64,000 nucleotides of DNA from Amphibalanus amphitrite. Lineage: Eukaryota > Arthropoda > Thecostraca > Balanomorpha > Balanidae. Shown here in pieces: positions 420 to 63,585 of the stretch. The stretch spans positions 1,054,001 through 1,118,000 of the forward strand of contig NW_024881519.1 of the NCBI RefSeq assembly GCF_019059575.1, written 5' to 3'. The notes beneath the pieces are model-generated. The model was not told the origin of the DNA and ran no database searches. It worked only from the letters and a program-made list of their open reading frames with translations. Within the stretch, counting starts at the first letter, position 1; every line of letters starts with the position of its first letter. The position numbers were made by a program, and so were the translations under genes.

Positions 420-1866
420 CCCTCGCCGGCCGATGGGGGGACGGCGGGTGCCGCCCCCCCCTAGGGTTTTTTCCGCGATAGCTCCTAACACACTGGCGAT
501 AGAAAGCTGAAACTTGGCATACCTAACCTTTGATTCAAGCCGGACCTTTTGACACCAACGGCATTTTCGAGTCAGGTCAGGTCACTGACCTATGACGTTA
601 TAAGTGAACCTCTGCACGGTCTTCAGATGTCGCAACTTCACAACGCCCTCCCAGAGGAAACTCACAGGGAAATGAAACTTGCAGGATCAAGTATCCATAA
701 CGAGTCTCACAACTTGTATATCTCGGATTTTTCCTAAAGGTCATATGAGGTCAGGTCATTTTCGTGACCTCACCATTAAAAGTCAATGGGGAAAAATGAA
801 AACTGCTATTCTGGCGCCGGGAACGATCTCCAACTATCTCAAGCACACAGAATCGTGATTTGATGTACTCCTTGCAAGGTTACATGCGTCACTTTTGCAA
901 TGTTGACCTTGCGTGACGTCATTTACAACGTCATCAAGGTCATTTTAGTTTTTCGTCAATCACTCCCGATCAAATTGAGCTAGCGAGCCAGGAAAGCTAC
1001 CAATGAACGCAGGAAGACCCGCCGAATCGAATGATATACGACATGACCTCTTTCGACCAACTTCGTGACCTGGGGGCGCTAATTTTACACCTATCCTTAA
1101 AATTTCATGACCCTGACCCTAATGGCCTTTGACCTGTGACCTACTACTTTTCGAGACCATGTTTGGCCGTAATCGCGATTCAGCGCATGTCGGCTCGCAT
1201 CAGCCGCGCGTTTGCAGTCTTTTCGTGGTTTCAAGCGTTCAAACATGGGATATGATGTTGCTCCCATGCATTAGGGTGGGTGTCAAGATCACCGGGAGGT
1301 CAGGTCAGGTTATTGACCTTTGATGACCTCGGTTTTCTTTTTTGGAGTTTTACATGTCTCTAGGCTAGTTTTTGGATCTGAATTCGAATTTAGCAACCAT
1401 TTGAACATTTACGAAGTAATTTTGGTGCATTCGTAACATGTTACGAAGCTGTCAGATGCGGTTGCCACCTACTACGAATACCCGGCAAAACCCTTACTGG
1501 TTGACCTGACCTGACCTGACCTGACCCGACCTGGCCTAAATGCATGAAGACATTATCTATGATCATTATTAACATGATATTCGTGATCATCACCCCGAAA
1601 AAAGAAACCTATAGCAGCCACCTTTACGACGTTCTAACATGTCCCGCTTTTCCCGACTTTTGGCCATTGACCTGACCTGGAAGGTTGGCCGATGACCAGG
1701 GACCTTAAAATTGGGTATCATCGGCTTTCTCTCGTCACGGGCAGCACGCTCGTTTTTTTCTGCGAAGGTCTAGCTTGATAAGGGGCGAAACGGCAAGGGG
1801 GGGGGGGGCAACAGACTCCTGCCCCCTATACGTTCGTGGCTGGAAAAACACCAATACGGGCGAGGG
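420..1866 (+). mobile_element. TTAA-flanked MITE with AGGTCA motifs (copy 1)
   Basis: The element is bounded by TTAA at 416-419 and 1867-1870. It starts CCCTCGCC and ends GGCGAGGG, so the outermost 8 bases are inverted repeats. A G-run and C-run hairpin lies just inside the left end (about 435-463). The body contains many TGACCT/AGGTCA hexamers, including the run of GACCT repeats at 1501-1530. TTAA target duplication and CCC termini are the hallmarks of piggyBac-type elements. There is no transposase frame, so it is non-autonomous. The 1080-1866 part is clearly related to 7480-8253, 37340-38134 and 61800-62366. The 480-1080 part is related to 36900-37243, so this copy may be a mosaic. Confidence 0.7.
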
Positions 1867-1888
1867 TTAAGAGTGTGTCCTTTAATAA

Positions 1889-3051
1889 CCCGCGCCCTGA
1901 TGGGGGGCCATTTTGGCCCACACCCTGTGGTTTTTCTTAAATAGCGAGAAAACGGCGGCGCGCAGCGCCGCCAAATTTTGGGTACCTTACCGGGCATCAA
2001 TTCGACACCTTCACACAAAATTTCAAGTCACAGGTCACCTCAGGTCAGGAGTTATTGAGGTCAAACTGAGGTCATGTTCGAGTAAAAATGAGCAAAAAAC
2101 ATGACATCTTGAAACGCTCACCAATTCTACAGTTAATAAACAATTTTAAAGTTCTTTATGTGGTTGTGTAGAGAAAAGACGTCGCTACAAAACTGCTATC
2201 TCGGATTTTCAAAATTTTGGGATTTTGACCCCCAAAAATAAAAAATTAATTTTTTTTAGAAAAACTCAAAAAATTTCCAAATATTTTCGAATTTCGGAAA
2301 AACCGGAATATATGTGATAGTCCCTGCGCTCTTCGATATACATACCAAATTTAAGATCGATACCTCTTTTTTTTGGCCAAGTTATAGCGAAAAAACTGTT
2401 AAAAATTGATGACGTCAAATTTTTGAACTCAATTTTTAGCACTTCTAGACCTTGTAGCGCAAAAAGGAGACCACCATTGAACTTCCCGTGACGAGCTGCA
2501 TCGAATCGGTACCCATTTTATGCAAAAATATCAACTTTGAAATTTGACCTAATTTGACCTGACCTTGATCTGACCTTGACTTGACCTTGACCAAAACGTG
2601 ACCTAGGCTGGCCTTAAAGTCTGCCTGATCTACATAATCGCATTTGTCATGTAAAATGGACCATGAAACATGTATCACACGACACTTTCATATTGTGACC
2701 CCCAGTGACCTGACCTCTGTGACCTGACCTGGTATCAGTGACCTCAAATAGCAAAATATGTGTTTGAAGAACATTTCCCCATTGATGATTGTCAATGAAA
2801 TGCATTTTACTCGATTTTACAACGCATTTCTTGAAATGCCTGTAAACGGTGAAAATTCGACCTTTGACCTGACCTGTGACGTCATCGGTTTGACCGAGGT
2901 CAATGAAATTAGATCACAAGGTAGTTCCCCGTTCGGGCAACGCCGTTTACCGCTTGTCGCTATGTTGCGTGGTTCTCGAGATCTTAGGGGGGCCAAAATG
3001 ACCCCCCCCCCATCAGAACGCGTTGCTAGGCAGACCCCATCAGGGCGCGGG
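1889..3051 (+). mobile_element. TTAA-type MITE, CCCGCGCCCTGATGGGG ends
   Basis: The left end CCCGCGCCCTGATGGGG and the right end CCCCATCAGGGCGCGGG are perfect 17-base inverted repeats. The right flank is TTAA (3052-3055). The left flank is ATAA (1885-1888), a one-base departure. The interior holds AGGTCA/TGACCT motifs and a block around 2140-2530 that recurs at 33860-34300 and 40170-40640 in the other orientation. Only 22 bases separate it from the preceding element. No coding capacity. Confidence 0.75.
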
Positions 3052-3055
3052 TTAA

Positions 3056-3964: not shown

Positions 3965-6435
3965 GCACACAAAATGCAACATAAATCGGTTTCTTCGTTG
4001 GTGATATCACGAAAACGTGTTGGCAATAGTCTAATTATGTTACAAAAATGCGTGATAAAATTACTCAAATTAATTTGAAAATTCATAGATGGCGTCAGGG
4101 TACCGAAGTTGGCAGGTGAAGTCGATCTCCCTTTCTTTTCCGGGGTCCACCTATGATCCACCTGGCACCTCTTGTTCACTTGTGAACCTACAAAAAATGT
4201 TCATTTCAATCGCTATTGCCTTTGTTATTTTACACACTTAACGTCATGATCTGAGTAGAAAATATTCGCTGTGTGTAATTACTTTCCAATACCTTCCAAC
4301 ATTCACTGGACGCGCCTAGATATTTTTTTAATGTATAGCTTGCAAGTGTTCCAGAACTTAACTGAATTGAGTCACTCCAGGACAATCTAACTATTACCAA
4401 GCCGCTCATCAAATGCTACGTTGCATATCAATATCACACCCCTTTTTTGGACGCCTAGATCGTGCTATTATAACCCTCGCCCTGGCAGGGCATTTTTCGT
4501 AACGCGGCCTGGGGGGGGGGGGGGGGGGGGGCGTGATCCGACCTCCTGGCGTTTCGAAACTAAACGTCGTAGCGCTTCCCAACAAAGACAAGTCGATTGC
4601 TCTTTACGAGTATTCGCGACTGGTGATACCTATATTTTTATCCTAGGTCAATATTTGACACCGTTTTGGCTAGTCAACGATCAAATTACGGGGAAAAGCT
4701 AAAATTTTCCAAGCTATTTAGCCAATAATGGCAAATCTATGAAAGATATCAACATGAAACTTTCACGACCGTGTTTCCCAATGAATTAGCAACAAAATGA
4801 TGCATAGTTCACTGCAGTTCAGTCATTACTGGCGTGACATAGTCCCCGGGAACACGAGAGTCACACCCGCCGCTGGCGAGGACGGTCCTAATTGACCTGA
4901 GGTGACCTTGTACAGATCGAGGAACAATTTTGAAAGCATTTAGATGAAGATTGAACCACAGATTCGGATTCAGGACCTCGAGAAACCCCACTAAACACAG
5001 ACATGCGAGGTCAATGACCTTTGTTGACCTTAGAAATGTCAATATACAATTAATGTTTCATGTCCTGTCAAAATCTGACATAAGTCACAGAATAATTTCG
5101 TTCTTGTCGATGGGATCGCGTCCAGTTACGCCAGATGTACGATTTTGTCAAAAAGAGTCGGAGGTTTTACCTATTGTGAGGTTATAGCTCGGTGACCTGA
5201 CATGACCCGAAAATATTTTTTTACCGAAAGATTGAGCTGAAAGTTAGCAAGTAGGTAGGCACCCACTAAGCCATGCATATCCATGTGCCAGATTTGGGGT
5301 GCTGTTGCACGTGCGCACGTGCAGGGGTCGATTCCAGATCTCGAAGACGGCTGGACCGATTGCGCTCAAATTTGGTACACGGTTAGGGAGCAGTTGGTAG
5401 GGTGCCGTGCAAAAGTCAGTTGGGACCCAGTTGGCACGTGCGCACATGCAGGGTGCCGCTTCCAGATCTCGAGAACGGCTGGGCCGATTGCGCTCAAATT
5501 TGGCACATCACTAGGGACCGGTTAGTAGGTCTTGGGGTGCAGTGCACAAGTTATTTGGTGGTACCCCCTCGCAATTTCGCACGTGCAAGGCCCACCCTCC
5601 CGCTCACTCCGTTGGTCGCCCCAAAAGGCGTTTTACTGGTGTGCACGATTACTTTATAAAAATGCTGAAGTGTTGCAAGTGATTGACAAATATTGTCCAA
5701 AGCATGCTGCCTTTGCCCAACCAAATTCCGATTTGGGCATAGGACAAAATCGGAATTCGGAAGGTACAAAATCCAATTGGCACCACTCTAACAGATGTGG
5801 TAAGGTTGTGATAGGTTTTACCGAACGGAGATATAGACGATCTGCACAACTGACGAGAGAAGCCAACCTCTGTCAACTGGCTGGTGTGCAGCAAGCAGAT
5901 ATTGATATTCTGCAACGGTTATTTTTGTTGTTGTTTTAATCTTTCTTCAATAAGGTACCTATGTTAGAGCTGTTGTGCCTATTTGTTTATACACCAAACA
6001 ACATCGGTGATAGCCAGATAACTATTTCATGGCGTGCAAAGAAAGACTGTTCAAGTTACCCAACGGTCGGGTTATTTGAATACACCGTCACTTGACGGAG
6101 AAGCAAGGCTTTACTTCACATTTTTCAAAAAAAAAAAAAATATGTTCAACTTGAAACTTGATGCACTCTATGGCAATGACTCTTGTGAAGTTGTTCTTAG
6201 GAAAATAAAAATTTATTTTATTGGCTTCCACTCGCCAAACCCGCTTTTCCTATAGCTCAATCAAGGGATGAATCACTGGGTGGTTCTTTCGACCCCTCCT
6301 CACCCTCCTGCAATTGAAGTTAGCCGTTGGCAAAGACACTAATTCGTGCAGGGGCTCATTTTCACTTGTCCTTTTAATGTAATCGGTGACTAAGCCAGCC
6401 GGCCAAATGAACAAAAATCCATACAAACCCAGGTG
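3965..6435 (+). repeat. 2.4-kb segmental repeat, copy 1
   Basis: This segment recurs at 15889-18775 in the same orientation. Both begin at GCACACAAAATGCAAC and both end at CAAACCCAGGTG. Inside are a CCCTCGCCCTGGCAGGG-type element end (about 4472), AGGTCA motifs (4880-5040), and a CACGTG-rich block (5250-5650) that recurs inverted at 57784-58170. Copy 1 lacks the 480-bp TTAA element found in copy 2 and so shows the approximate empty site (about 6390-6400). No gene is recognised; the open frames at 5283-5939 lie within repeated DNA. It may be a composite transposon whose ends I cannot define beyond the copy boundaries. Confidence 0.7.
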
Positions 6436-7374: not shown

Positions 7375-8253
7375 CCTTCGCCGGTATAGGGGGGGGGGGG
7401 TCGAACAGCCCCCTCTCGGTTTTTCGCAAATAACTCACGTAAAAAGCCGCTGATCGCGACGAGACTTTCATTACCCTCGCGTTCATCAATTTTACACCTA
7501 CCCTGACATTTTCATGACCCTGACCCAAATGACCTCAGACCTGTGATCTACTTTTCGAGACCATGTTTGGCCGGAATCGCGATTCGGCGTATATGTCGTC
7601 TCCTAATAGCCGCGCGTTTGCACTCTTTTCGTGGTTTCAAACGTTCAAACATGTGATATGATATTGCTCCTATGCATTAGGGTGGGTGTTAAGTTCACTT
7701 GAAGCTCAGGTCAGGTCACTGAACTTTAATGACCTCGGTTAACTTTTACATGTTTCTAGGCTAGTTTTTTAGCTGAATTTGAATTTAGCAACCATATGAA
7801 CATTTACGAAGTTTTGGTGCCTTCGTAACATGTTACGAAGCTGTCAGAGGCTGTTGACACCTACTACGAATACCCGGCAAAACCGCTACTGGTTGACCTG
7901 AACTTAGCTGACCCGACCTGGCCTAAATGCATGAGGACATCATCTGTGATAAAAACTAACATGATATTCGTGATCAGCACCCCGAATAGCCCCGTAGCAG
8001 CCTCACTTTACGACCTTCTAACTGGTCCCGATTTCCCCGACTTTTGGGCCGTTGACCTGGCCTGGAAGGTCAACCAATGACCTAGGACCTTGAAATTGCG
8101 TATCATCGGCTTCCTCTTGTCATGGGCAACACGCTCGTTTTTTTTTTCGCGAAGCTCTAGCTCGATCAGGGGTGAAACAGCGAGGGGGTCAAACGGACTC
8201 CCCCTTCCCCTTATAAGTGCGCGGCTGAAAAAAAACACCAATACGGGCGAGGG
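7375..8253 (+). mobile_element. TTAA-type MITE, decayed copy
   Basis: The left flank TTAA (7371-7374) is followed by CCTTCGCCGGTAT and a G-run hairpin. The right end reads ATACGGGCGAGGG, its inverted counterpart, but the right-hand TTAA is lost. The body is collinear with 1060-1866 and 37300-38134, including the words GACCATGTTTGGCCGGAATC and TAACATGTTACGAAGC. No coding capacity. Confidence 0.65.
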
Positions 8254-8614: not shown

Positions 8615-9293
8615 ATATACCTTGAACTATAATATGACCTTGAAAGAACAACTTGTAAATTTGACCTATGGTCAAGGTGATGACCTGACCGGAAAAAGGT
8701 CATGTTGCATATCAGCCGATCCGCAACCTCGAGCCGAATACATCTAAGGCGTTTTCAGCGCTCTAGAACGACTCTATCAGAAGTTATTAGCGAAAAACTG
8801 TTAGATTCTGTTCGTGACCTGAGATGACCTCGGGGACATAACGAGGGGTCACAGTAGCCATTTTCCGGTTCAGTGTGTCAATTTTACCTACATCTCGATG
8901 TTTGAGAGTGTCTAGGATAGCGTTCGTGCAAAACAGACGCTTTTCAATTTTCTCAATTTGACTTATAATGGAGAGGCCGCAAAATTGACCTGACCTCAGG
9001 TCTACGATATAAAAATTCCGAGATATACATTTTATAGATAATGTTGCTCTTATCAATCGCTGAAACTTTCAAAGCAATCGATCAATCGGTGTAGCTATGA
9101 CGAGCATTCTAATTTTTTTCTGGGGTGAGGTCACTTGGCGTGACCTGGTGACCTGACCTAAGCCGACCTGGGTCTGAAATTTTCACAATATGTGCGGAAA
9201 AGATGCACGAACAGGTGTGCCAAAAACGACGGCGCACCTGCGAAAAATCGCAGGGGGGGGGGGTGTTCAAACACCCCTCCGGCCCGGCGCGGG
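8615..9293 (-). mobile_element. 5'-truncated AGGTCA-type TTAA element
   Basis: Collinear with 30299-30982 and 60230-60908, up to the terminus CCGGCCCGGCGCGGG at 9279-9293, next to a TTAT (9294-9297). The other end is missing: sequence similarity starts abruptly near 8615, shortly after the Tc1-type element. It contains TGACCT/AGGTCA motifs and the subterminal G-run hairpin (about 9252-9275). Confidence 0.6.
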
Positions 9294-9297
9294 TTAT

Positions 9298-10359
9298 TAT
9301 ACATCAATTTGACACGTTCCCTGAAAATTTGAGCGATGTCCGTCGGATTTTTTTTTAGAAAATGACGTTTTAGTGACGTCATGTTCGCCATTTTCGCCTC
9401 AAAAACGGCAGAATTTCAAACGCCGCTAACATCTTCCTTTTTTAAGGAATCAAGACATAACAAAAAGGTTATAGGTACGTGATTTTACTTTGTCCATCAA
9501 ATGGTTATCTCGGTTTTTTGAAAGTTTGGATTTTGGCCCAATTTTTTCTAAAAAAAACTGACTTTTTTGGGAAAATAATGATAACATCCAAAATTTTGAG
9601 TGTATCGAAAAAAAAAAACGGCGGACATGTCCGAGAACTGGTCTATGTGCACCTACATACCAATTTTTAGAAGAAATGGTTAAAAAATGTGGGAGTTATT
9701 CAAAATTTTATGACGTCACGACACACAAAATTTTTGAAAAATGATTTTTTGGAAGTTCTAGACCTTGTACGGAAACAAAATTAGCACCATTCGATTCGCC
9801 GTGAAAAACTGCAGCAGATAGACACCTTTGTAGGCCTTAACAACCAACTTCAAAATGTGACCTCACTTGACCTGACCTTGACCTGACCTCGACCTGAAAT
9901 TCATCCAGAGGTGGTCCATATCACTTATTGAGTGTGCCTATTGAATTCTATGAATAAAATGACCCATAAAACATGTGTCGCACATGCCCTTTTCTATATT
10001 TTGTTGTTGGTGACCTGACCTGACCTGACCTGACGTGACCTCGAACTATATTGTATGCAACGAATATTGTCTTGGTATCCTAAGAACACGTTTTGGGCAA
10101 TCAGTCTCAGTCCATTCTTTGGCAACTACGGTGCAAGGCCGATACTGTAGAAACTTGCATTTTGTACCCTTGACCTGACCTTGACCTGACCTCTGACCTA
10201 CTTAAGCAAAAAATTTGGGCTCTGAAGATCCGCCTTGTTGAGAGCTTTCGATTGCCGTTTTCCCCGTCTTTCTACAACCATCGGTTCGGAAGTTAGACAG
10301 GGGGCAGAATCTGCCGCCCCCCCAGCAGGGCGCGTATGGCTGAATAGCCGGGGCGCGGG
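9298..10359. mobile_element. Composite of AGGTCA-rich element fragments
   Basis: Contains TGACCT runs (9860-9895, 10010-10038, 10165-10200) and a terminus GGGCGCGGG followed by TTAT at 10360-10363. A second, inner terminus-like CCCCCCCAGCAGGGCGCG lies at 10316-10333. The left boundary is not a clean TTAA end, so this is a mosaic rather than one intact copy. No gene. Confidence 0.45.
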
Positions 10360-10604: not shown

Positions 10605-11141
10605 CCCTCGCGGGCCCGGGGTGGGCGTTTTCGCCCCCCCCCCCCCTGGCGAATATTTGCGATAGCTCCCGAACGCTTAGGGATAGGAAAGCGAAACTTT
10701 CAGTACCTTTTATCCCATGAATTTGACATCTTCTGAGGCAAAAATTTTGGCCTAGCCCCAATGATGACGTCACAGGGTCGATTTTTTTTTACCCCTGCAC
10801 GGCAAATTTCGGCGTCACAGACGCGATTTTCAAATAGCTGCTAAAAATAGAGTTTTAGAGATGAAGACAAATTGCGAGCACGGTTGTGTAGCGTTTGACC
10901 TAGAGATAAATAGAAAAATAGTTTTGGTGACCTGAGGTCAGAGGTCAGGTTAACGACCCCGAGCTGTGGCTTTAGTTTTTCGCAAATAACTTCGACAAAA
11001 ATGTGTAGAATTGGTTGATGATAGGGTGTGTTGAAAACGGCGGCGCTCCACGCCACCCTTTTTGAGATATCCGCGAAAAACAGCAATGAGAGGGGATGTT
11101 CAAACACCCCCTCCCCCAGCAGGGCACCGGCTAACACACTT
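10605..11141 (+). mobile_element. Mosaic AGGTCA-type element
   Basis: Begins after TTAT (10601-10604) with CCCTCGCGGGCCCGGGG and a G/C hairpin, like the 420 element. It finishes with a decayed CCCCAGCAGGGCACCGG terminus of the other family at about 11140. The two ends do not match each other, so the interval is probably a fusion or nested remnant. Confidence 0.45.
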
Positions 11142-11532
11142 TTACCCCAGTAGTCAAAATTCCTTAGCCGAGGCCCTGGTTGGGGGGGAGGGGGAGCAAA
11201 AGCAATCCGTCCCAGCTCAAATAACAATATCTATAATCAAATTCGTTATCAGCACCCCGAAAAAGCCGCATTGCAACCTTTTTTACGATGTTCTAGCAGG
11301 GTCCAATTTTCCCGACTTTTGGGTTATTGACCTGACCTGCAAGGTCAACCAATAACCTAGGGTCTTAAAATTGGGTATCATTCGCTTCCTCTTTTTACGG
11401 GCAGCACGCTAGTTTTCTCCCGCGAAGCTGTAGGTCGATCAGGGGCCAAACGGCAAGGGGGGTCCAACGGAACGGACCCCTCTCCCCTTATATACGTTCG
11501 CGGCTGGCAAAACACCCGAATACGGGCGAGAG
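11142..11532 (+). mobile_element. 5'-truncated TTAA-type MITE end
   Basis: From about 11236 this matches the 3' part of the 7375 and 37248 elements (GATCAGCACCCCG-like and TAAAATTGGGTATCAT words). It ends ATACGGGCGAGAG immediately before TTAA at 11533-11536. The last bases carry one change from GAGGG. The first part (11142-11235) is unassigned. Confidence 0.5.
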
Positions 11533-11536: not shown

Positions 11537-12470
11537 CCCGCGAGTTGCTGGGGGGGGGGGGGGGGGGGGCGTTAAACGCCCCCAGTTTTTTTCGCCGGGC
11601 CATAGCATACAAACGGCGCGCTGCAGGCGCGCCAAATTTTGGGTACCTGTAGGGAATTGATTGAAGTTTATTGTGACAAAGTTTCAAAAAAAATCAGTCC
11701 GAAAATTTTTGAGATTTCGAGGTTATAGTGACGTCATGATTTCTGAGTTTTCGACCAAAAACGGCATATGTTCAAAAAATGATATAAAATCACAGAATAG
11801 ACATACAGACATGTCGTAAACGCCATTAGACTGCCAATACCATGAACAATCAAATGTCCATCTTCGATTATTGATTATCGTTCCGCATTTTCCAAAATCT
11901 TTAACTGAATCTTGGCAATTTCTAGTGACTGCTTCACTACCATGATACATGCATTTCTTAAATTGAACTTTTTGAGCCAAACACGTACACATATGATAAA
12001 ATGAATGTCACCATCGTGTTCTACGCCCCAAATTACCCATAAAACATGTGTCACAGGCTGCGAATATCAGTTTTGATTTTCGGGGATATGTGCCTACCCG
12101 GTTGACCTGACCTTGACCCTGACCTATGCTTGACTGACCCTTACATGGAGCTGACACTCTTGTAGGCCTTATATGATGGATTGTGCACCGTTTTGACAGA
12201 GGTTATGACGAGAGGCGCCCATTGCGAAGTCCTGAAGTCCATGTTACTGAAAGCCCGATTTCAGGTGTTTGACCTGACCTTGACCCGACCTGTGACCTCA
12301 AAATTCAACTTTAAAGTACTCATCTGAAGCGTCTCGTCGCGTTCTTTCTTTTGCCGCCTCGTGCGTTTCGCTGCGCCTATTGGTTCTCGAGTTATCGGCT
12401 GGGGGCGTTTAACGCCCCCCCCCCCCCCCCAGCAAACGGTGGGTGGCGAAATACCCCAGCAACTGCCGGG
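11537..12470. mobile_element. TTAA-flanked MITE with long G-tract
   Basis: Flanked by TTAA at 11533-11536 (shared with the preceding element) and at 12471-12474. The left end CCCGCGAGTTGCTGGGG and the right end CCCCAGCAACTGCCGGG are imperfect inverted repeats. A G-run of about 20 followed by CGTTAAACGCCCCC forms a hairpin inside the left end (11548-11586). A similar GGCGTTTAACGCC hairpin lies near the right end (about 12404-12430). TGACCT motifs occur at 12100-12300. No coding capacity. Confidence 0.75.
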
Positions 12471-13785: not shown

Positions 13786-15820
13786 CCCACGCCGCGCCGG
13801 GCCGGGTCGGTGTTTGAACACCCCCTGCGGTTTTTCGCATATATCTCAAAAACCCTGTTCGTGCATCTTTTCCACACATGTTGTGAAAATTTCAGACCCA
13901 GGTCGCCTTAGGTCAGGTCACCAGGTCACACCAAGTGACCTCACCTCAGAAGAAATAAGAATACTCGTCATAGCTACACCGATTGATCGATTGCCTTGAA
14001 ACTGTGAGCGATTGATTAGAGCAACATTATCTATAAAATGTATATCTCGGAATTTTGCTATCGGTGACTTAAGGTCAGGTCAACTTTGCGGCCTATCCAT
14101 TATCCCTCGCACATGGGGGGAGGGTGGTCACTCCCCCCCCCCCCCCGGTAGTCTTTCTGCTCTGCACTCAACATTTTTAGAGCTAGAAGCCTGCCTGATT
14201 TTTCGTATAGCTGCTCCTCTATCCTTTCTTGATGTCCACTGAAAATTTCAAGTTTCTGTGGTTTTTTGTTTCGGAGATATGACCTTGTATTTCAGGTCAT
14301 GTCATGACCCAAATGACCAATTCAATACATCTTGCGTTGGCTATGGGCCTTGTGAGCTTTTGACACCTTGATTTCGACCTTTTTTGCCAGTCGTACCTCC
14401 CATCTATCATGGAACATGTTTTTCGACGATGTACAGATGTCAAGATCAGGGAAAAGGTAAAGCTAGGTCATCTAAAATAATTGCATTTTGGGCAAGCTGA
14501 ATTTACTTTTCGTGAAGTTTTTTGACTGTATTTTTGGCAAAAGCTTTCAGATCATGATTTCATGTAATATGGACACATAAACAATCGGTACACACATCAA
14601 CATACACACAGACACACACAGACATACAAACGCATATCATTGACCTTGACCTAACTTGACCTGAAATGACCTCAGCAGCAAAAACCTGGTCCGGTAGTGT
14701 GACAAAGAGGTTCTAGTTGGCTTGGCACCAGAAAACGGCATCGTCATCGGTATATGATAAGCAGCGCACTTGATATCCAACGGTGACCCAAAACAGCAAC
14801 ATTTTTCATTTTGACCTGACCTGGAAGGTCAATGACTGACCTGAGAAAGTAAAACTGGGTATCATTGGATTCGTCTCTTCCCAAAGAATCTTTTTGGTCC
14901 TTACCGCGAAGCTTTTTCTCCAACAGGAACGAAATAGCGTGGGGGGTGGGGGTGGTAACCACCTCCCTCATGTGCGTTCTAGGATGGGAAAATGGCATGT
15001 GCGGGCGAGGGTTATAAGTCAATGGGAGAAAATTGAAAAGCGTCTGTTTTGCACGAACGCTATTCTAGACACTCTCAAACATCGAAATGTAGGTAAAATT
15101 GACACACTGAACCGGAAAATGGCAACTGTGACCCCTCGTCATGTCCCCGAGGTCATCTCAGGTCACGAACAGAATCTAACAGTTTTTCGCTAATAACTTC
15201 TGATAGAGTCGTTCTAGAGCGCTGAAAACACCTTAGATGTGTTCGGCTCGACGTTGCGGATCGACTGATATGCAACATGACCTTTTCCGGTCAGGTCATG
15301 ACCTTGACCTGAAGTCAAATTTTCAAGTTGACCTTGCAATTCGACGCGTCTCGACGAAAGGAACACAATGCTGGCAAAAGTAATGTCATCGCTCTTTTGA
15401 GTCAATAGTTATTGCCGAAAAACGCTTTTCGTAAAAACGGCTATTTTGGGAGTTTTTGCCCTCTGGAGGCTAAACCGTTGACCTGAGGTCAAATCTGAGA
15501 ACAATACACAGAAAGGTCTGTAAAAGGGCTATCGAATGCGCTTTTCCGCGGCGCTGTAGCTCTATCGGTTCCCGAGATAGCCATTGGCACTTTCCAAAAT
15601 GTTGAAATAGTCAACATTTTATCTTTGGTGACCTCTGGTGACCTGACCTTTGACCTAACCCAAAAAATGACTGAAGTGTTTTCGTCCTTATTTTGGACGT
15701 TCTCTCGAGTGCCGCTTACCGCGTGTCGCTACGTGACCCAGGAAACGAGTTAGAAGGGGGGTGTTCAGACACCCCCCTCTCGGCCCGGCGCGGAATCTCA
15801 GAGCACCGGCCCGGCGCGGG
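13786..15820 (+). mobile_element. TTAA-flanked MITE interrupted by a second MITE
   Basis: Flanked by TTAA at 13782-13785 and 15821-15824. Left end CCCACGCCGCGCCGGGCCGG, right end CCGGCCCGGCGCGGG. Removing the nested element at 14104-15011 and one copy of its TTAT leaves a normal-sized member of about 1.1 kb, collinear with 59734-60908. The body carries AGGTCA motifs, for example 15290-15312 and 15620-15655. No coding capacity. Confidence 0.75.
14104..15011 (+). mobile_element. Nested MITE inserted at TTAT
   Basis: The left end CCCTCGCACATGGGG and the right end CATGTGCGGGCGAGGG are inverted. The flanking duplication is TTAT (14100-14103 and 15012-15015), not TTAA. The host sequence rejoins as CCATTATAAGTCAATGGG, which exists uninterrupted in the related copies at 30630-30650 and 62739-62753. 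Its sister copy is at 31975-32875. No coding capacity. Confidence 0.8.
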
Positions 15821-17618
15821 TTAACATGAATCATAAATATAACCATTCCGAAATATCAAAGGCGGATACATGTAATCGAATTAAGGAGGCACACAAAATG
15901 CAACATAGGTAAATCGGTTTCTTCGTTGGTGATATCACGAAAACGTGTTGGCAATTGTCTAATTATGTTACAAAAATGCATGATAAAATTACTCAAATTA
16001 ATTTGAAAATTCATAGGTGGCGTCAGGGTACTGAAATTGGGAGGTGAAATCGACCTCCCTTTCTTTTCCGGGAACATCCTATAATCCACCTGGCACCTCT
16101 TGTTCACTTGTGATCCTACAAAAATGTTCATTTCAATCGCTATTGCTTTTGCTATTTTACACACTTAACGTCATGATCTAAGCATAAAATATTCGCTGTG
16201 TGTAATTACTTTCCAATACCTTCAAACATTCAGCAACTGGACGCGCATAGACTTTTTTAATATATAGCTTGCAAGTGTTGCAGAACATAACTGAATTTAA
16301 TCACTCCAGTGCAATCTAACTATTACCAAGCCGCCCACCAAATGCTACGTTGCATATCAATATGAAACCTCTTTTTTTTTGGACGCCTAGATCGTGCTAT
16401 TATAACCCTCGCCCTGGCAGGGCATTTTTCATAACGCGGCCTGGGGGGAGGGGGATGATCCGACCTCCTGGCGTTTCGAAACGAAGCGTCGTAGCGCTTC
16501 GCAACAAAGACCAGTCGATTGCTCTTCGAGCATTCGCGACTGGTGGTATATTTTTATCCTAGGTCAATATTTGACCATGTTTTGGCTGGTCAACGATCAA
16601 ATTTCGAGGAAAAGCTATAATTTTCCAAGCTTTTTAGCCAATATTGGCAAATCTATTGAAGATATCAACATGAAACTTTCAAGACCGTGTTTCTCAATGA
16701 ATTAGCAACAAAATGATGTATAGTTGACTGCAGTTCAGTCATTACTGGCGTGACATAGTCCCCGGGAACACGAGGGTCACACCTGCCGCTGGCGAGGACG
16801 GTCCTAATTGACCTGAGGTGACCTTGTAAAGATCAAGGAACAATTTTGAAAGCATTTAGATGAAGATTGAACCACAGATTCGGATTCAGGACCTCAAGAA
16901 ACCCCACTAAACACAGCTCATATCACGGAAGTCAGCCCGTGAACATGCGAGGTCAATGACCTTTGTTGACCTTAGAAAGGTCAATATACAAAGTAAGGAT
17001 TCATTCCCTGTCAAAATCTGACATAAGTCACACAGAATAATTTCGTTCTTGTCGATGGGATCGCGTCCAATTACGTAAGATATATGATTTTATCAAAAAC
17101 AGTCGGAGGATTTACCTATTGTGACGTCATAACTAGGTACCTGACATGACCCGAAAATATTTTTTACCGAAAGATTGAGCTGAAAGTTAGCATGTAGCAC
17201 CCACTAGGCCATGCATATCCATGTGCCAGAGTTGGGGTGCTGCTGCCCGTGCGCACGTGCAGGGGTTGATTACAGATCTCGAGAACGGCTGGGCCGATTG
17301 CGCTCAAATTTGGCACATCACTAGGGACCGGTTAGTAGGGCTTGGGGTGCAGTGCACGAATTATTTGGTGGTACCCCCTCGCAATTTCGCACGTGCAAGG
17401 CCCACCCTCCCGCTCACTCCGTTGGTCGCCCCAAAAGGCGTTTTACTGGTGTGCACGATTACCTACTTTATAAAAATGCTGAAGTGTTGCAAGTGATTGA
17501 CGAATGTTTTCCAAAGCGTGCTGCCTTTGTCCAACCAAATTCCGATTTGGGCATGGAACAAAATCGGAATTCTGAAGGTACAAAATCCAATTGGCACCAC
17601 TCTATCAGATATGGTAAG

Positions 17619-17659
17619 GTTGTGATAGGTTTTACCGAACGGATAAAACCTATCACAAC
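17619..17659. repeat. Perfect 16-bp-arm hairpin
   Basis: GTTGTGATAGGTTTTA at 17619-17634 is repeated inverted at 17644-17659 with a nine-base loop. In copy 1 (about 5803-5833) only the first arm is present and the sequence continues directly, so the second arm is an insertion specific to copy 2. Confidence 0.75.
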
Positions 17660-18249
17660 GGAAAATATAGACGATCTGTCAACTGACGAGAGAAGCCGAC
17701 CTCTGTCAACTGGCGGGTGTGCAGCAAGCAGATATTGATACTCTGCAATGGTTATTTTTGTTGTTGTTTTAATCTTTTTTTCAATAAGGTATGTTTAGAG
17801 CTATTGTGCCTATTTGTTTATACACTAAACAACATCGGTGATAGACAGATAACTATTTCATGGCGTGCAAAGAAAGACTGTTCAAGTTGCCCAACGGTCG
17901 GGTTATTTGAATACACCGTGACTTGACGGAGAAGCAAGGCTTTATTTTACTTTTTTTTTCTTCAAAATATGTTCAACTTGAAACTTGATGCACTCTACGG
18001 CAATGGCTCTTGTCAAGTTGTTCGAAAAGTCAAGGCTGTTCAAGTTGTTCTTAGGACAATAAAAATTGATTCCATCGGCTTCCACTCGCCAAACCCGCTT
18101 TCCCTATAGCTCAATCAAGGGATGAATCACTGGGTGGTTCTTTCGACCGCTCCTCATCCTCCCCTGCAATTTAAGTTAGCCGTTGCGAAGACACTAATTC
18201 ATGCAGGGGCTCATTTTCACTTGTCCTTTTAATGTAATCGGTGACTTAA

Positions 18250-35252: not shown

Positions 35253-35399
35253 AACAAAAGATTTTGTCAGGTTTCGGAAGGTCCGTCATATGACTGAAAA
35301 CAGTTTTCCGGCCTGATAGCCCAGGATTTATAGTCACATTATAAGTTTAAATAGCGTATAGTCAAGGCCCGAAAGAACCAATCCAAGGCCTAGGGTCGC

Positions 35400-37243: not shown

Positions 37244-37247
37244 TTAA

Positions 37248-38134
37248 CCCTCGCCGGCACAGGTTGATGCAACCCCCCTAAGGTTTTTCGCGAATAACTC
37301 GCGTAAAAAGCGGCCGATCGCGACGAAACTTTCAGTACCCTCGCATTTATCAATTTTACACCTACCCTGAAAATTTCATGACCCTGACCCCAATGACCTT
37401 TGACCTGTGACCTCTTTTCCGAGACCATGTTTGGCCGGAATCGCGATTCGGCGTATGTCGGCTAACATTAGCCGCGCGTTTGCAAGCTTTTTGTGGTTTC
37501 AAACGTTCAAACATGTGATTTGATGTCGCTCCCATACATCAGGGTGGGTGTCAAGGTCACCTGAAGGTCAGGTCAGGTCATTGACCTTTGGTGACCTCGG
37601 GTGACCTCGGTTCACTTTTTCGAGTTTTACATGTTTCTAGGCTAGTTTTTGGAGCTGAATTTGAATTTGGCAACCATTTGAACATTTACGATGTAGTTTT
37701 GGTGCCTTCGTAACATGTTACGAAGCTGTCAGAGACGGTTGACACGTATTACGAATACCCGTCACAACCCCTACCGGTTGACCTGACCTGACCTGACCCG
37801 ACCTGGTCTAAATGCTTAAAGACATCATCTCTGATCAAAACTAACACGATATTCGTGATCAGCACCCCGGAAAACAACACAGCAGCCACAATTTACGACT
37901 TTCTAACAGGTCCCGATTTTCCCGGTTTTCGGGTCATTGACCTGACCTGGAAGGTCACCCGATGACCTAGTACCTTAAAATTGGGTATCATCGGCTTCGT
38001 CTCGTGACGGGCAACACGCTCGTTTTTTCCGCGAAGCTCTAGCTCGATCAGGGGCCAACGCGAGGGGGGGGGGGTCGTACCAACCCCCCCCCTTGTGCCG
38101 TCGAAGGACGCAAAATGGCCTGTGCCGGCGAGGG
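37248..38134 (+). mobile_element. TTAA-flanked MITE, CCCTCGCCGGCACAGG ends
   Basis: Flanked by TTAA at 37244-37247 and 38135-38138. Perfect 16-base inverted ends CCCTCGCCGGCACAGG. The body is the best preserved member of the family at 7375 and 61693. It has tandem GACCT words at 37780-37806 and AGGTCA words at 37565-37600. A G/C hairpin lies near the right end (38065-38100). Confidence 0.85.
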
Positions 38135-52544: not shown

Positions 52545-52846
52545 ACAAGCGGCTGCGCCACTTGCTTTGCTGCGTGGTAGGAAAAAATTGCGGCACCAGC
52601 CAATTTGCTTTCGAATGGTGTTTGATTCATGTCGATGTGTCGTCTAGAACTATAGATATGGACGGAAATGTGAAGAGAATTTAAAAAAACTGTTCTGAGG
52701 GCGTTTTTGGATGAAATTTGGGTGATACGGGGTCAAGACGGGTCAAAGGGGTCAGCCCCGATCACTTTGGGTCAGGCCAGGTCACATAGGTCACCTCTCG
52801 TCCGCTGGGATCAGCCCGGGCCACTGTTCTGCTTTTGTCTCCACCA
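52545..52846. other. Unassigned stretch with GGTCA words
   Basis: GGGTCA/AGGTCA words recur at 52730-52800 without an element end. No gene. Confidence 0.35.
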
Positions 52847-59098: not shown

Positions 59099-59138
59099 CC
59101 CGCGCCCCACTGGGGGTCTGCGTATAACGCGCCTTAAC
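59099..59138 (+). mobile_element. TTAA element terminus (solo end)
   Basis: TTAA (59095-59098) followed by CCCGCGCCCCACTGGGGG. Only about 40 bases remain before the hAT-type element. The matching right end was not found. Confidence 0.45.
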
Positions 59139-59726
59139 CAGTGGCGGCGGATTCGATTTTGGCGTGGGGGGGGGGGGGGCAAGATCCCAGTCGAGATGAT
59201 GTCATAGGCGGATCCAGAAAGGCGTTTTCGACGCTGTAGGGGACATACCCCCAAAAAAGTGTCCAAAATCCAAAAACTCCTCGGATTTTGATTCCTTACT
59301 GCTAAATAGTATAAAACAAACAAAAAATCCTGATAAAAGTGTTATTATTAGGAAACATAAGGTACGTTTTGTCCATTTCGGGCGATGCCGAGGCCAGAGG
59401 GAGGGGGAGTAAATATTTGCTTTAAATGCCCGCTCCCTGGATCCGCCAGTGGACGATGTAACGCTTTTCGTATTGCTGTATTAGAAAAAGCTCCAATGGG
59501 AAAAATTGTGCCATAACCCGATCGCTTATCAGATGTTGAAGAACGGTGCCAAACCTTTTGAAGTAGGCGAGCGCTATTCTTCTCGATTCTCAGGCACTAG
59601 AGAATCGAGTGCCTGAATCGAGAATCAAGAAAGCACTCGAGAAAAAGATACTTTTGCCCCCCCCCCCCCGCGATTTTGCCAGGGGGCAGCTGCCCCACTG
59701 CCCCCCCCCCGAATCCGCCGCCCCTG
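59139..59726. mobile_element. hAT-type MITE with 8-bp duplication
   Basis: Starts CAGTGGCGGCGGATTCG and ends CGAATCCGCCGCCCCTG, inverted repeats of about 17 bases with one mismatch. The 8-bp word GCCTTAAC flanks both sides (59131-59138 and 59727-59734), which is the hAT signature. G-run and C-run tracts lie near both ends. An internal second terminus (GGATCCGCCAGTGG, about 59438-59451) suggests a nested relative. No transposase. Confidence 0.85.
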
Positions 59727-59733
59727 GCCTTAA

Positions 59734-60908
59734 CCCGCGCCGGGCCGGTGCAGTGCTCTGAGATTCCGCGCCGGGCGGGGGTGTCTGAACACCCCCGTCT
59801 AACTCGGCTCCTGGGCCACGTAGCGACACGCGGTAAGCGGCAATCGAAAGAACGTCCAAAATAAGGACGAAAACACTTCAGTTATTTTTTTGGGTTAGGT
59901 CAAAGGTCAGGTCACCAGAGGTCACCAAAGGTAAAATGTTGACTATTTCAACAGTATGGAAACTGCCAACGGCTATCTCGGGAACTGATAGAGGTACAGC
60001 GCCGCGGAGAAGCGCATTCGATAGCCCTTTTACAGACCTTTCTGAGTAATGTTCTCAGATTTGACCTCAGGTCAACGGCTTAGCGTCCAGAGGGAAAAAA
60101 TTCCAAATATAGCCGATTTTACGAAAAGCGTTTTTTTCCTCAATAACTTTTGACTCAAAAGAGCCATGACATTACTTTTGTCAGCATCGTGTTCCTCTCG
60201 TCGAGACTCGTCAGATGAACTAAGATTTGACCTTGAAAGGTCAACTAGAAAATTTGACCTCAGAAGGTCAAGGTCATGACCTGACCGGAAAAGGTCATGT
60301 TGCATATCAGTCGATCCGCAACGTCGAGCCGACCACATCTAAGGTGTTTTCAGCGCTCTAGCACGCCTCTATCAGAAGTTATTAGCGAAAAACTGTTAGA
60401 TTCTATTCGTGACCTGAGATGACCTCGGGGACATAACCAGGGTTCCAGTTGCCATTTTCCGGTACAGTGTGTCAATTTTACCTACATCTCGATGTTTGAG
60501 AGTGTCTAGAATAGCGTTCGTGCAAAACAGACGCTTTTCAATTTTCTCCCATTGAATTATAATGGAGAGGTCGCAAAATGGACCTGACCTTAGGTCACCG
60601 ATATCAAATTTCCGAGATGAACATTTTATAGATACTGTTACTCTTACCAATCGCTGAAAGTTTCAAGGCAATCGATCAATCGGTGTAGCTATGACGAGCA
60701 TTCTTATTTTTCTGAGGTGATGTCACTTGGCGTGACCTGGCGACCTGACCTAAGGCGACTTGGGTCTGAAATTTTCACAACATGTGCGGAAAAGATGCCC
60801 GAACAGGTGTGCCAAAAAAGCGGTGCTCCGCGCCGCCGTTTTTGAGATATCTGCGAAAAACCGCAGGGAGGGGGGGGGGGGGTTCAAACAACCCCGGCCC
60901 GGCGCGGG
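59734..60908 (+). mobile_element. TTAA-flanked MITE, CCCGCGCCGGGCCGG ends
   Basis: Flanked by TTAA at 59730-59733 and 60909-60912. Left end CCCGCGCCGGGCCGG, right end CCGGCCCGGCGCGGG: perfect 15-base inverted repeats. The left end is compound: a second CCGCGCCGGGCGGGGG terminus lies 37 bases in. The body carries AGGTCA motifs (59895-59935, 60230-60300). The hAT element landed on its left TTAA. Confidence 0.85.
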
Positions 60909-61688: not shown

Positions 61689-61692
61689 TTAA

Positions 61693-62366
61693 CCCTCGCA
61701 TGTGTAGGGGGGTCGGATAGACCCCCCATGGTTTTTCGCGAATAACTCGCGTAAAAAGCGGCCGATCACGACGAAACTTTCAGTACCCTCGCATTGATAA
61801 TTTGACACCTACCCTGAAAAATTCATGATCCTGACCCAAATGACCTTTGACCTGTGGCCTCTTTTCCGAGACCATGTTTGGCCGGAATCGCGATTCCGCG
61901 TATGTCGGCTCACATTATCCGCGCGTTTGCAAGCTTTTCGTGGTTTCAAACGTTCAAACATGTGCTTTGATGATGCTCCCATGCATTAGGGTGGATGTCA
62001 AGGTCACCTGAAGGTCAGGTCAGGTCATTGACCTTTGGTGACCTCGGTTCACTTTTTCGAGTTTTACATGTTTCTAGGTTAGTTTTTGGAGCTGATTTCG
62101 AATTTAGCAACCATTTGAACATTTATGAAGTAGTTTTGGTGCCTTCATAACATGTTACGAAGCTGTCAGAGGCGGTTGACACTTATTACGAATACCCGTC
62201 ACGACCCCTACCGGTTGACCTGACCTGACCTGACCCGACCTGGTCTAAATGCTTAAAGACATCATCTCTGATCAAAACTAACACGATATTCGTGATCAGC
62301 ACCCCGAAAAACCTCTTAGCAGCCACACTTTACCACTTTCTAACAGGTCCCGATTTTCCCGACTTT
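61693..62366 (+). mobile_element. TTAA-type MITE, 3'-truncated
   Basis: TTAA at 61689-61692, left end CCCTCGCATGTGTAGGGG, body collinear with 37248-38040. It breaks off at CCCGACTTT (62366), followed by a (TGTAT)n tract and then another element. TGACCT runs occur at 62216-62241. Confidence 0.75.
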
Positions 62367-62390
62367 GTATTGTATTGTATTGTATTGTAT
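62366..62390. repeat. (TGTAT)n pentanucleotide
   Basis: Five copies of TGTAT at the junction between two TTAA elements. The last T provides part of the next TTAA. Confidence 0.85.
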
Positions 62391-62393
62391 TAA

Positions 62394-63585
62394 CCCGCGC
62401 CCTGCTGGGGGGGGGGTGTTTGAACACCCCCCCTTGTGGTTTTTCGCGAATATCTCAAAAACGGCGGCGCGGAGCGCCGCCGTTTTTGGTACACCTTATC
62501 ATACATCAATTCTACACATGTTGTAAAAATTTCAGACCAAGGTCATTCAAGGTCAGGTCACCAGGTCACTTGAAGTGACCTCACCTCATAAAAAGTTTCA
62601 ATGTCTGTCATAGCTACACCGAGTGACCGATCGCTTTGAAACTTTCAGCGATTGCTAAGAGCAATAGCATGTACAAAATGTATATCTCAGAATTTTGATA
62701 TCGATGACCTAAGGTCAGGTCAATTTTGCGACCTCCCCATTATAAGTCAATGGGAGAAAATTGAAATGCGCCTCTTTTCGATGAAAGACATTATAAACAC
62801 TCCCAAACACCGAATTACAAGTGGTTTAGACACACTGAACTTGAAAATGGTGTCCGTGACCCTTGTTTATGCCCTGAGGTCATCTCAGGTCACGAATGGT
62901 ATCTAACAGTTTTTCGCAAATAACTTTTAATAGAGGCATGCTAGAGCGATGAAAACGCCTTAGATGTGTTCAGCTCGACGATACGGATCGACTGATATGC
63001 AACATGACCCTTTCCGGTCAGGTCATGACCTTGACCTGAGGTCAAATTTTCAAGTTGACCTTTTAAGGTCAAGTTATAGTTCATTCGATGCGTCTTGACG
63101 AGAGGAACACGATGCCGGTAAAAGTAAGCTCGTACAAGGCTTGGGTCAAAAGTTATTGCAGAAAAACTGTTTTCGAAAAAATCGGCTATTTTTGCAGTTT
63201 TTGCCCCCTGCAGGCAAAACCGTTGACGTTAGGTCAAATCTGAGAGAATTACTCAGAAAGGGCGTTAAAAGGGCTATCGAATGCGCTTTTTCGCGGCGCT
63301 GGAGCTCTATTGGTTCCCGAGTTATGCGTTGGCTTCTTGGAAATTTTCGACATTCGACCTGGAAATCGGCGAAATTTTGCCTTCAATGACCTCTGGTGAC
63401 CTGACCTTTGACCTGACCAAAAAATTGACCGAAGTGATTTCGTCATTATTTTTTACGCTCTTTCGAACGCCGCCTTCCGCGTATCGCTACGTGGCCCAGG
63501 AGCCGAGTTACAAGGGGGGGTGTTCAAACACCCCCCCCCCCCCCCAGCAGGGCGTGGAAATCCAGGACCCCCAGCAGGGCGCGGG
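62394..63585 (+). mobile_element. TTAA-flanked MITE (same family as the palindrome halves)
   Basis: Flanked by TTAA at 62390-62393 and 63586-63589. Left end CCCGCGCCCTGCTGGGG with a G-run and GTGTTTGAACAC hairpin; right end CCCCAGCAGGGCGCGGG after a duplicated inner terminus. Near-identical to 28609-29792 over its whole length. AGGTCA-rich. No coding capacity. Confidence 0.85.

What the first reader, a model, noticed from the sequence alone, without database searches (positions are those of the whole stretch)
420..63585. Several families of TTAA-flanked MITEs share one architecture: CCC terminus, G-tract hairpin and AGGTCA arrays
At least ten bounded copies (for example 1889-3051, 11537-12470, 28609-29792, 31975-32875, 37248-38134, 59734-60908, 62394-63585) have TTAA or near-TTAA flanks and start CCCKCGCC. 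Each also carries a variable G-run, a short hairpin whose core differs by family (GTTTGAAC, GTTAAAC, TTGGTGCAA, TTGCCAC) and a C-run, usually followed by GGTTTTTCGC or a variant. The interiors are unrelated between families yet all are packed with TGACCT/AGGTCA. TTAA plus CCC ends is piggyBac-like. The conserved subterminal hairpin with an exchangeable loop, together with the shared hexamer, looks like a recognition module common to one transposase.
Basis: partly seen in the sequence, partly recalled or inferred. Interest (0 to 1): 0.75.

Follow-up and report, generated by a model that had tools for sequence, protein, structure and literature searches.

The report
Jumping DNA with built-in nucleosome spacing
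An animal-like genome carries many seemingly gene-less mobile DNA elements whose ends are laid out like those of the piggyBac transposon and whose middles read like a written-in string of nucleosomes separated by binding sites for a host protein, suggesting that these parasites carry instructions for their own chromatin.

Summary
In detail: 14 bounded elements of six interior families have TTAA-type flanks, CCC[G/T]CGCC tips, a G-run/palindrome/C-run, and about 15 times the AGGTCA density of other window DNA. Two things were missed. (1) Each of the 14 has one short and one long end. The long end repeats its tip motif, shifted by exactly 27 bp in 8 of 9 family representatives (null mean 0.25); palindromes sit about 29 and 55 bp from the tips. 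This is the asymmetric LE35/RE63 layout of piggyBac; the "hairpin" is best read as the duplex palindrome gripped by the transposase CRD dimer. Tips and palindromes differ between families and match within most elements, so one common transposase is unlikely. (2) AGGTCA forms clusters of nuclear-receptor-type half-sites at a nucleosome-like pitch (19 of 25 gaps 145-210 bp). The clear stretches between clusters (median 143 bp) have AA/TT periodicity near 10 bp (z 9.6), and AGGTCA is preferentially conserved between subfamilies. Best reading: nonautonomous piggyBac-type elements whose interior encodes a positioned-nucleosome array with host-factor-bound linkers. No autonomous copy, species name or chromatin data could be obtained; the chromatin step is inferred from sequence.

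The parts
420..1866 (+). Element B1 (short end left, long end right), TTAA|TTAA; looks chimeric: left half unlike other B copies
1889..3051 (+). Element E1, ATAA|TTAA; CATTTTGG in the palindrome at both ends
4474..6390 (-). G1: long end at 4474; short end not found; right limit uncertain (duplicated with flanks as G2)
7375..8253 (+). Element B2 (right flank degraded), TTAA|GGAG
8623..9293 (-). Truncated A copy (A7) with its short end at 9293
9340..10359 (+). H1: long end at 10359; left limit assumed, no short end found
10605..11532 (+). Element B3, TTAT|TTAA; contains an inverted A-type short-end fragment at about 10998-11138
11537..12470 (+). Element F1, shares one TTAA with B3; palindrome core CGTTAAAC at both ends
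13786..15820 (+). Element A5, interrupted by C2
14104..15011 (+). Element C2 inserted in A5, TTAT|TTAT; empty site present in six paralogous A copies
16406..18246 (-). G2, duplicate of the G1 region; right limit uncertain
28609..29792 (+). Element A1, TTAA|TTAA, palindrome around GTGTTTGAACAC
29797..30982 (-). Element A2, inverted, long end to long end with A1 across one TTAA
31975..32875 (+). Element C1, TTAA|TTAA, GGTTGCCAC in the palindrome
32880..33788 (+). Element D1, shares one TTAA with C1; palindrome core TTGGTGC(A/G)A
34484..35256 (-). Truncated A copy (A6)
37248..38134 (+). Element B4, TTAA|TTAA; short-end G-run eroded
59099..59733 (-). I1: a long end at 59099 without a recognised partner; extent uncertain
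59734..60908 (-). Element A4, TTAA|TTAA
61693..62393 (+). B5: short end plus interior, cut off before the long end; interior about 92% like B4 but different tip and palindrome
62394..63585 (+). Element A3, TTAA|TTAA
28609..28662 (+). Example short end: tip, G-run, palindrome, C-run
29730..29792 (-). Example long end: tip, insert, tip copy shifted 27 bp, palindrome
28750..29626 (+). Example interior (A1): six AGGTCA clusters at element bases 142-183, 305-322, 477-492, 620-671, 835-840, 991-1018, with clear gaps of 121-163 bp

Best explanation
These are nonautonomous DNA transposons of piggyBac type. Step 1 (shown): they sit in TTAA-like tetranucleotides, in one case with a demonstrated 4-bp duplication, and have CCC tips. 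Step 2 (layout shown, binding inferred): each has a short end (tip plus palindrome) and a long end (tip, insert, second copy of the tip shifted about 27 bp, palindrome), so that transposase can sit at each tip while C-terminal domains grip the palindromes, as in piggyBac LE35/RE63. The 'hairpin' is a two-fold symmetric protein site in duplex DNA rather than a folded strand. Families use different tip/palindrome pairs and so probably answer to different transposases. Step 3 (sequence signals shown, chromatin inferred): the interior is laid out as a nucleosome array: cassettes of about 143 bp with ~10-bp AA/TT periodicity, separated by linkers (6-70 bp) carrying AGGTCA half-sites, in register with both ends. 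A host AGGTCA-binding protein, most likely an orphan nuclear receptor, would occupy the linkers and fix nucleosome positions. Step 4 (inferred): this keeps the element accessible in germ-line chromatin, leaves the ends outside the array, and may fold the fibre so that the ends meet. Selection for mobility keeps AGGTCA while the rest of the interior drifts.
For: Ends: unrestricted palindrome search put the best centre at 51-63.5 bp in 14 of 17 long ends and at 22-41.5 in 12 of 16 short ends; within set ranges the medians over 14 elements are 55.25 and 28.75, median difference 27.5 (single differences 11-38). Tip copy at lag 27 in 12 of 18 long ends (16 of 18 at 26-28) and 0 of 16 short ends (2 at 28); family level 8 of 9, null mean 0.25, maximum 3 in 500. 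piggyBac has this layout: RE bp 34-63 almost identical to LE bp 7-35, palindrome at LE bp 17-33 bound by the CRD dimer (passages of PMC7351741). Target: TTAT|C2|TTAT with the empty site in six paralogues. Clusters: 19 of 25 gaps in 145-210 bp in seven representatives, null mean 25%, 0 of 5000 reach it; last cluster 171-193 bp from the long tip in 9 of 9 elements, first 152-184 from the short tip in 7 of 9. No simple tandem repeat. Clear gaps: median 143 nt over 29 gaps; AA/TT/TA power z 7.4 at 10.0 bp in 18 gaps of seven representatives, z between -0.8 and 1.3 at 8-9.4 and 11.2-13; power 0.674 at 10.2 bp against at most 0.509 in 300 background sets; AA/TT alone z 9.6, AA/TT/TA peak 10.05 bp, in 21 gaps. 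Conservation: AGGTCA kept 74-87% between A subfamilies (~80% identity) against 32-40% of other non-CpG hexamers and 35-52% of its permutations. Half-site: AGGTCA 109 against 3, GGGTCA 16 against 3.
Against: No transposase was seen and no autonomous copy could be sought (genome search did not complete). No chromatin data. H1 shows only z about 1 for the 10-bp signal; single elements reach z 2-4, E1 also 4.2 at 9 bp; background DNA has a slight signal (z 2.0); left terminal segments give 3.0 at 8.5 and 2.2 at 9.8 bp. The AA/TT phase is not always reset: B1's first three gaps agree, so element-wide curvature is not fully excluded. B2/B1 shows no AGGTCA conservation (8 of 20 against 38%). D1 is irregular (gaps 96, 96, 154, 230); F1 and H1 lack clusters in their first ~500 bp. 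With looser motifs B1 (AGGTC) and E1 (GGTCA) have one more site nearer the long end. With B1 as B representative the period test is weaker (180 bp, P 0.009). Other A and B long ends have shifts of 26, 28 or 31, and H 23. B1-B3 lack matching palindromes; G1, G2 and I1 gave no clear one. Clusters contain no AA/TT, so they lack that signal trivially. Families share some descent.
Confidence: 0.6

Rival explanations
1. AGGTCA repeats are transposase binding sites: an internal extension of the subterminal repeat arrays known from other DNA transposons, raising transposase occupancy.
For: Conserved direct repeats, 50 of 132 close same-strand neighbours at 5 bp and 30 at 10 bp; piggyBat has repeated transposase sites in its left end (passages).
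Against: They run through the whole interior, not only the ends; the motif is identical in families whose tips and palindromes differ; nucleosome-like pitch and 10-bp AA/TT cassettes are not explained.
Confidence: 0.15
2. The interiors are enhancer-like cargo: nuclear-receptor response elements spread because they drive transcription or recruit host factors, with nucleosome spacing a by-product of enhancer architecture.
For: RGGTCA consensus; 16 of 109 sites read TCAAGGTCA, an extended half-site of monomeric orphan receptors (recalled); receptor sites occur in Alu repeats (PMC3252374, title and start of abstract in the listing).
Against: Clusters in register with the ends, and preservation in families with largely different interiors, argue for a role for the element itself; no linked genes known.
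Confidence: 0.15
3. The 10-bp AA/TT signal works like the periodic An/Tn clusters of C. elegans, protecting the element from germ-line silencing, without AGGTCA acting as a nucleosome spacer.
For: AA/TT/TA periodicity also in hexamer-poor interior (E1 z 3.8, H1 z 3.1, F1 z 1.9); PATCs can prevent germ-line transgene silencing (passages of PMC7725773).
Against: Does not explain why AGGTCA clusters interrupt the periodic stretches every ~170 bp.
Confidence: 0.12
4. The arrays are telomere-like (TCAGG)n repeats caught in transposons; (AGGTC)n is the same string.
For: 5-bp spacing is the commonest (50 of 132); a (TCAGG)n probe is listed in PMC5452029 (passages); TCAGG as the beetle telomere unit is recalled.
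Against: The unit is a hexamer: AGGTC followed by C, G or T is near background (2/2, 6/3, 3/3); 6-, 7- and 10-bp spacings and mixed orientations occur.
Confidence: 0.03
5. The regular spacing is only shared descent from one ancestral element, with no present function.
For: End-proximal parts are distantly homologous between several families, and E/H, A/B1, F/H and D/G share inner stretches; A, B and C share the gap order ~165, ~200, then 155-176 counted from the long end.
Against: AGGTCA is kept while surrounding bases diverge, which drift alone does not give.
Confidence: 0.17

Closest known systems
piggyBac of Trichoplusia ni (LE35/RE63), passages of PMC7351741
   Same: TTAA target, palindrome at LE bp 17-33, long end with insertion and duplicated segment, shift of 27-28 bp; CCC tip (recalled)
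   Different: Tip and palindrome letters differ, G/C-run arms, no transposase gene seen here, interior with AGGTCA/nucleosome-like pattern
piggyBat of Myotis lucifugus, passages of PMC11707139
   Same: Repeated tip motif followed 3 bp later by an imperfect palindrome bound by two CRDs
   Different: Three motif/palindrome pairs in its left end and no such palindrome in its right end; here each long end has two tip copies and one palindrome
Coral CMITEs (PMC2872659; abstract, introduction, most of the methods and first part of the results read)
   Same: TTAA-flanked nonautonomous families with different tips, piggyBac-linked, tandem arrays, a new element assembled from old ones
   Different: About 100 bp long with a conserved 75-bp interior; no AGGTCA or nucleosome-scale design in the parts read
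Alu repeats
   Same: Sequence compatible with two positioned nucleosomes (passages of PMC8228248) and nuclear-receptor HNF4 alpha sites (listing of PMC3252374)
   Different: Retrotransposons; no end-registered periodic array of linker half-sites known to me (recalled)
C. elegans PATCs (passages of PMC7725773)
   Same: Periodic A/T clusters in noncoding DNA acting on germ-line expression
   Different: Not described in the passages seen as transposon units with spaced receptor half-sites

Membership tests
piggyBac superfamily (nonautonomous) | TTAA target-site duplication | tested here: met
   10 of 14 bounded elements TTAA|TTAA, 1 TTAT|TTAT with paralogous empty sites, 3 with one deviating flank
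piggyBac superfamily (nonautonomous) | 12-19-bp terminal inverted repeats with a CC[C/T]T terminal motif (wording of PMC2872659) | tested here: inconclusive
   CCC at 26 of the 28 tips of bounded elements; CCCT in B, C, D, but CCCG (A, E, F) or CCCA departs from the strict motif
piggyBac superfamily (nonautonomous) | Subterminal palindrome (CRD-dimer site) | tested here: met
   Unrestricted search: 14 of 17 long and 12 of 16 short ends in the expected zone; G1, G2, I1 without a clear one. Protein binding not tested
T. ni piggyBac-type end pair | Asymmetric ends, internal tip copy at a shift of 27-28 bp in the long end only | tested here: met
   Lag 27 in 8 of 9 family representatives; 16 of 18 long ends at 26-28; short ends 0 of 16 at 27, 2 at 28
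piggyBac superfamily (nonautonomous) | Mobilised by a DDD transposase of the superfamily | not testable with these tools
   Genome search unanswered; 20 window ORFs scanned gave only DUF1759 and RVT_1
MITE in the strict sense | Small size (usually under 500 bp; PMC2872659) | tested here: not met
   Bounded copies run from 879 to 1447 bp
MITE in the strict sense | Noncoding | tested here: met
   10 ORFs of 82-147 codons in or overlapping elements, a part of those listed, gave no Pfam match
Nuclear-receptor half-site array | RGGTCA consensus | tested here: met
   AGGTCA 109/3, GGGTCA 16/3; ACGTCA 18/3 is an unexplained extra, a few others are 2-3-fold up
Positioned nucleosome array | ~147-bp units with ~10-bp AA/TT periodicity between linkers | tested here: met
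   Median clear gap 143 nt; z 7.4 to 9.6 near 10 bp
Positioned nucleosome array | Nucleosomes observed there in chromatin | not testable with these tools
   No MNase, ATAC or Fiber-seq data at hand

The most novel reading that the evidence does not exclude
A class of cut-and-paste transposons that carries its own chromatin: the interior is selected not for coding but as a positioned-nucleosome array whose linkers are loaded with a host nuclear receptor, in fixed register with piggyBac-type ends, and this array is needed for mobilisation. Tip/palindrome modules turn over on top of a preserved chromatin chassis, letting the element switch transposases.
Probability: 0.4. Interest if true: 0.9.

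Novelty: new variant of a known kind. Interest (0 to 1): 0.75.

Why it matters
The asymmetric ends of piggyBac have been called enigmatic (passage of PMC7351741). Finding the same ~27-bp register in families with different tip and palindrome letters says that the geometry is what is conserved, and offers a natural series of matched tip/palindrome pairs. The interior, if it really is an encoded nucleosome array with host-factor linkers, would be a direct case of a transposon selected for its chromatin structure, testable by mapping nucleosomes on copies and by scrambling one motif.

Tried and rejected
Underlying ~165-bp tandem repeat: not supported; with hexamers masked, identity at lags 120-239 averages 25-27% with maxima of 28-33% in 8 of 8 elements, though some short segment pairs score above shuffles (best z: A1 8.1, inverted; E1 6.8; B4 5.2). 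Whole-element DNA curvature: not favoured, since AA/TT phases differ between most gaps, but B1's first three agree. Mutation bias as cause of AGGTCA conservation: non-CpG hexamers and permutations of the same letters are kept far less. Telomere-like pentamer: see rivals. RNA families: none at gathering threshold. Relatives elsewhere: three viral contigs patterns and one genome contigs pattern gave 0 loci (55). Literature: nine answered searches listed no title or abstract start reporting AGGTCA- or nucleosome-phased TTAA elements; this covers the held open-access library, several lists were cut (for example 30 of 228 papers, 12 of 356), and only six papers were opened.

Rows dropped: the spacing test used seven representatives, run twice (B1 or B4 for B); A2-A5, B2, B3, C2 were left out as family duplicates (A4 was printed, not tested) and G1, G2, B5, A6, A7, I1 as truncated or uncertain. 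Periodicity tests kept gaps of 91-219 nt, leaving out one B1 gap (58), two D1 gaps (85, 62) and the 470-nt gap of E1; the last, with F1 and H1 interior, was tested apart. H1's left limit (9340) was assumed. The family count used A1 and B4 for A and B; other copies of these have 26, 27, 28 or 31. One search searched palindromes only in set ranges and took a wrong one for the eroded B4 short end; that value stays in its medians and core comparison. One search chose inner palindromes at four short ends and odd ones at G1, G2, I1.
Full report
What is there. The window holds 14 elements whose two ends could both be placed, plus seven truncated or one-ended copies (A6, A7, B5, G1, G2, H1, I1). Bounded interiors fall into families A (A1-A5), B (B1-B4), C (C1, C2), D, E and F. 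Flanks of the 14 are TTAA|TTAA in 10, TTAT|TTAT in C2, TTAT|TTAA in B3, ATAA|TTAA in E1 and TTAA|GGAG in B2. C2 sits inside A5, and the joined flanks match an unbroken site in six paralogous A copies, each with a single TTAT, so for C2 the boundaries and the 4-bp duplication are shown by comparison. Three pairs share a single TTAA: B3|F1, A1|A2 (long end to long end) and C1|D1.

The ends. Read inwards from the tip, each bounded element has one short end (tip, G-run, palindrome, C-run, often GGTTTTTCGC) and one long end. An unrestricted search put the best palindrome at 51-63.5 bp in 14 of 17 long ends and at 22-41.5 in 12 of 16 short ends. Within set ranges the medians over 14 elements are 28.75 and 55.25 with a median difference of 27.5; single differences run from 11 to 38, largely with G-run length. 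The long end carries its family's tip motif twice. The best shift is exactly 27 bp in 12 of 18 long ends and 26-28 in 16 of 18 (the others 23 and 31); in short ends it is 27 in 0 of 16 and 28 in 2. With one representative per family 8 of 9 have 27, against a null mean of 0.25 and a maximum of 3 in 500 shuffles. Because tips differ between families (CTGATGGGG, CGCACATG, CGGCACA, TTGCTGGGG and so on) the inner copy has changed along with the tip. In T. ni piggyBac, RE bp 34-63 are almost identical to LE bp 7-35, the RE has an insertion and a duplication relative to the LE, and the palindrome at LE bp 17-33 is gripped by a CRD dimer (passages of PMC7351741). The layout is that of piggyBac; piggyBat is arranged differently (passages of PMC11707139).

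Modules. Palindrome cores agree between the two ends in A1-A3 and F1 (8 of 8 bases), A5, D1, E1 (7), C1 (6), less in A4, B2, C2 (5), B1, B3 (4); B4 scored 3 through a script error (by eye its cores TTGATGCAA and TTGGTACGA are alike). Between families the mean is 3.7 and 1 of 30 comparisons reaches 6. B4 and B5 are about 92% identical inside but have different tips and palindromes. I infer that end modules change faster than interiors and that several transposase specificities are in play.

The interior. AGGTCA density is 14.6 per kb in the bounded elements plus B5 against 0.9 per kb in 36,325 nt outside elements, relics and satellites. Among 132 close same-strand neighbours 50 are 5 bp and 30 are 10 bp apart (all copies; 24 and 13 of 60 with one element per family). 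Counts of single-base variants in seven representatives give AGGTCA 109 (3 expected), GGGTCA 16 (3), ACGTCA 18 (3), the rest 0-8 against 2-5; AGGTC not followed by A is near background. This fits the nuclear-receptor half-site RGGTCA (recalled).

Pitch. In seven representatives 19 of 25 gaps between cluster centres lie in 145-210 bp (null 25%, 0 of 5000); with B4 for B, 17 of 21. A free-phase period test gives 172.5 bp (0 of 2000) with B4 and 180 bp (P 0.009) with B1. The last cluster lies 171-193 bp from the long tip in 9 of 9 elements examined (A1, A4, B1, B4, C1, D1, E1, F1, H1), the first 152-184 bp from the short tip in 7 of 9; F1 and H1 lack early clusters (H1 has no known short end) and D1 is irregular. 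With the looser motifs AGGTC or GGTCA, B1 and E1 respectively gain one site nearer the long end. No simple tandem repeat underlies this.

Nucleosome signal. The AGGTCA-free gaps have a median of 143 nt over 29 gaps from nine elements. If they hold nucleosomes they should carry a ~10-bp AA/TT rhythm. Eighteen gaps from seven representatives give z 7.4 at 10.0 bp and 6.7 at 10.2, and values between -0.8 and 1.3 at 8-9.4 and 11.2-13. Single elements give about 2-4 near 10 bp, H1 about 1; E1 also gives 4.2 at 9 bp. Terminal segments between palindrome and first cluster give 1.2 (7 left) and -0.5 (9 right) at 10.0, with left values of 3.0 at 8.5 and 2.2 at 9.8. Background (178 pieces) gives 2.0 at 10.2; random background sets reach at most 0.509 in power against 0.674. 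With 21 gaps AA/TT alone gives z 9.6; the AA/TT/TA peak is at 10.05 bp; phases differ between most neighbouring gaps, though B1's first three agree. WW/SS opposition was also seen but follows in part from exclusion.

Selection. Between A subfamilies AGGTCA is kept 74-87% where other non-CpG hexamers are kept 32-40% and permutations of its letters 35-52%; C1/C2 92% against 67%; B4/B5 92 against 67; B4/B2 64 against 44; B5/B2 62 against 41; B4/B1 71 against 42; B5/B1 76 against 38; B2/B1 40 against 38, no effect. Identity over the hexamer is 89-99% by position against 75-90% at most flanking positions. These pairs are not independent of each other.

How it most likely works. Shown: target, tips, palindromes, asymmetric register, half-site consensus, pitch, AA/TT rhythm, preferential conservation. 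Inferred: transposase synapsis as in piggyBac; a host receptor in the linkers; nucleosomes in the cassettes; benefit to mobility through accessible ends, resistance to silencing or end-to-end folding. That AGGTCA is a host site rather than a transposase site is argued from its sameness across families whose transposase-facing parts differ.

Limits. One window; species unnamed (an ORF with DUF1759 is taken as BEL/Pao and hence animal from recalled knowledge); no autonomous copy; no chromatin data; families share some descent. At 879-1447 bp the elements exceed the usual MITE size given in PMC2872659 (abstract, introduction, most of the methods, first part of the results), so 'nonautonomous piggyBac-type elements' is the safer name. 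On checking, the overall confidence was lowered slightly (0.62 to 0.60) because inner matches between families and the partly shared AA/TT phase were stated too lightly at first.

Noticed in passing
6453-6903 and 19087-20290: A 61-bp minisatellite in opposite orientations whose unit contains TGACCT/AGGTCA; 40 of the 365 hexamers lie here, outside any TTAA element.
   Followed up: partly
420-1866 and 37005-38134: B1 looks like a chimera: its bases 437-657 match 37005-37225, just outside B4, and from base 662 on it matches B4 from base 105; a deletion across B4's short end in a B4-like locus would give B1.
   Followed up: partly
43768-44493 and 48750-49483: Direct repeats 97.8% identical around an ORF with DUF1759 (45399-47198): probably a young BEL/Pao-type LTR element, perhaps inserted in a non-LTR element whose reverse transcriptase fragment lies at 43351-43899.
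   Followed up: no
3965-6391 and 15889-18246: About 2.4 kb duplicated at ~88% identity including the G1/G2 long ends and their flanks.
   Followed up: no
21177-22205 and 51505-52545: Inverted pair, ~1 kb, 90% identical, unidentified.
   Followed up: no
40745-41298 and 50467-51083: Tandem repeats of related AT-rich units (15 and 30 bp) in opposite orientations.
   Followed up: no
elements A1, B1, C1, D1, E1, F1, H1: ACGTCA/TGACGT is also enriched (18 against 3), perhaps a second factor site near the clusters.
   Followed up: no
61026-61498: Eight AGGTCA outside the annotated elements, between A4 and B5: perhaps an unrecognised decayed element.
   Followed up: no
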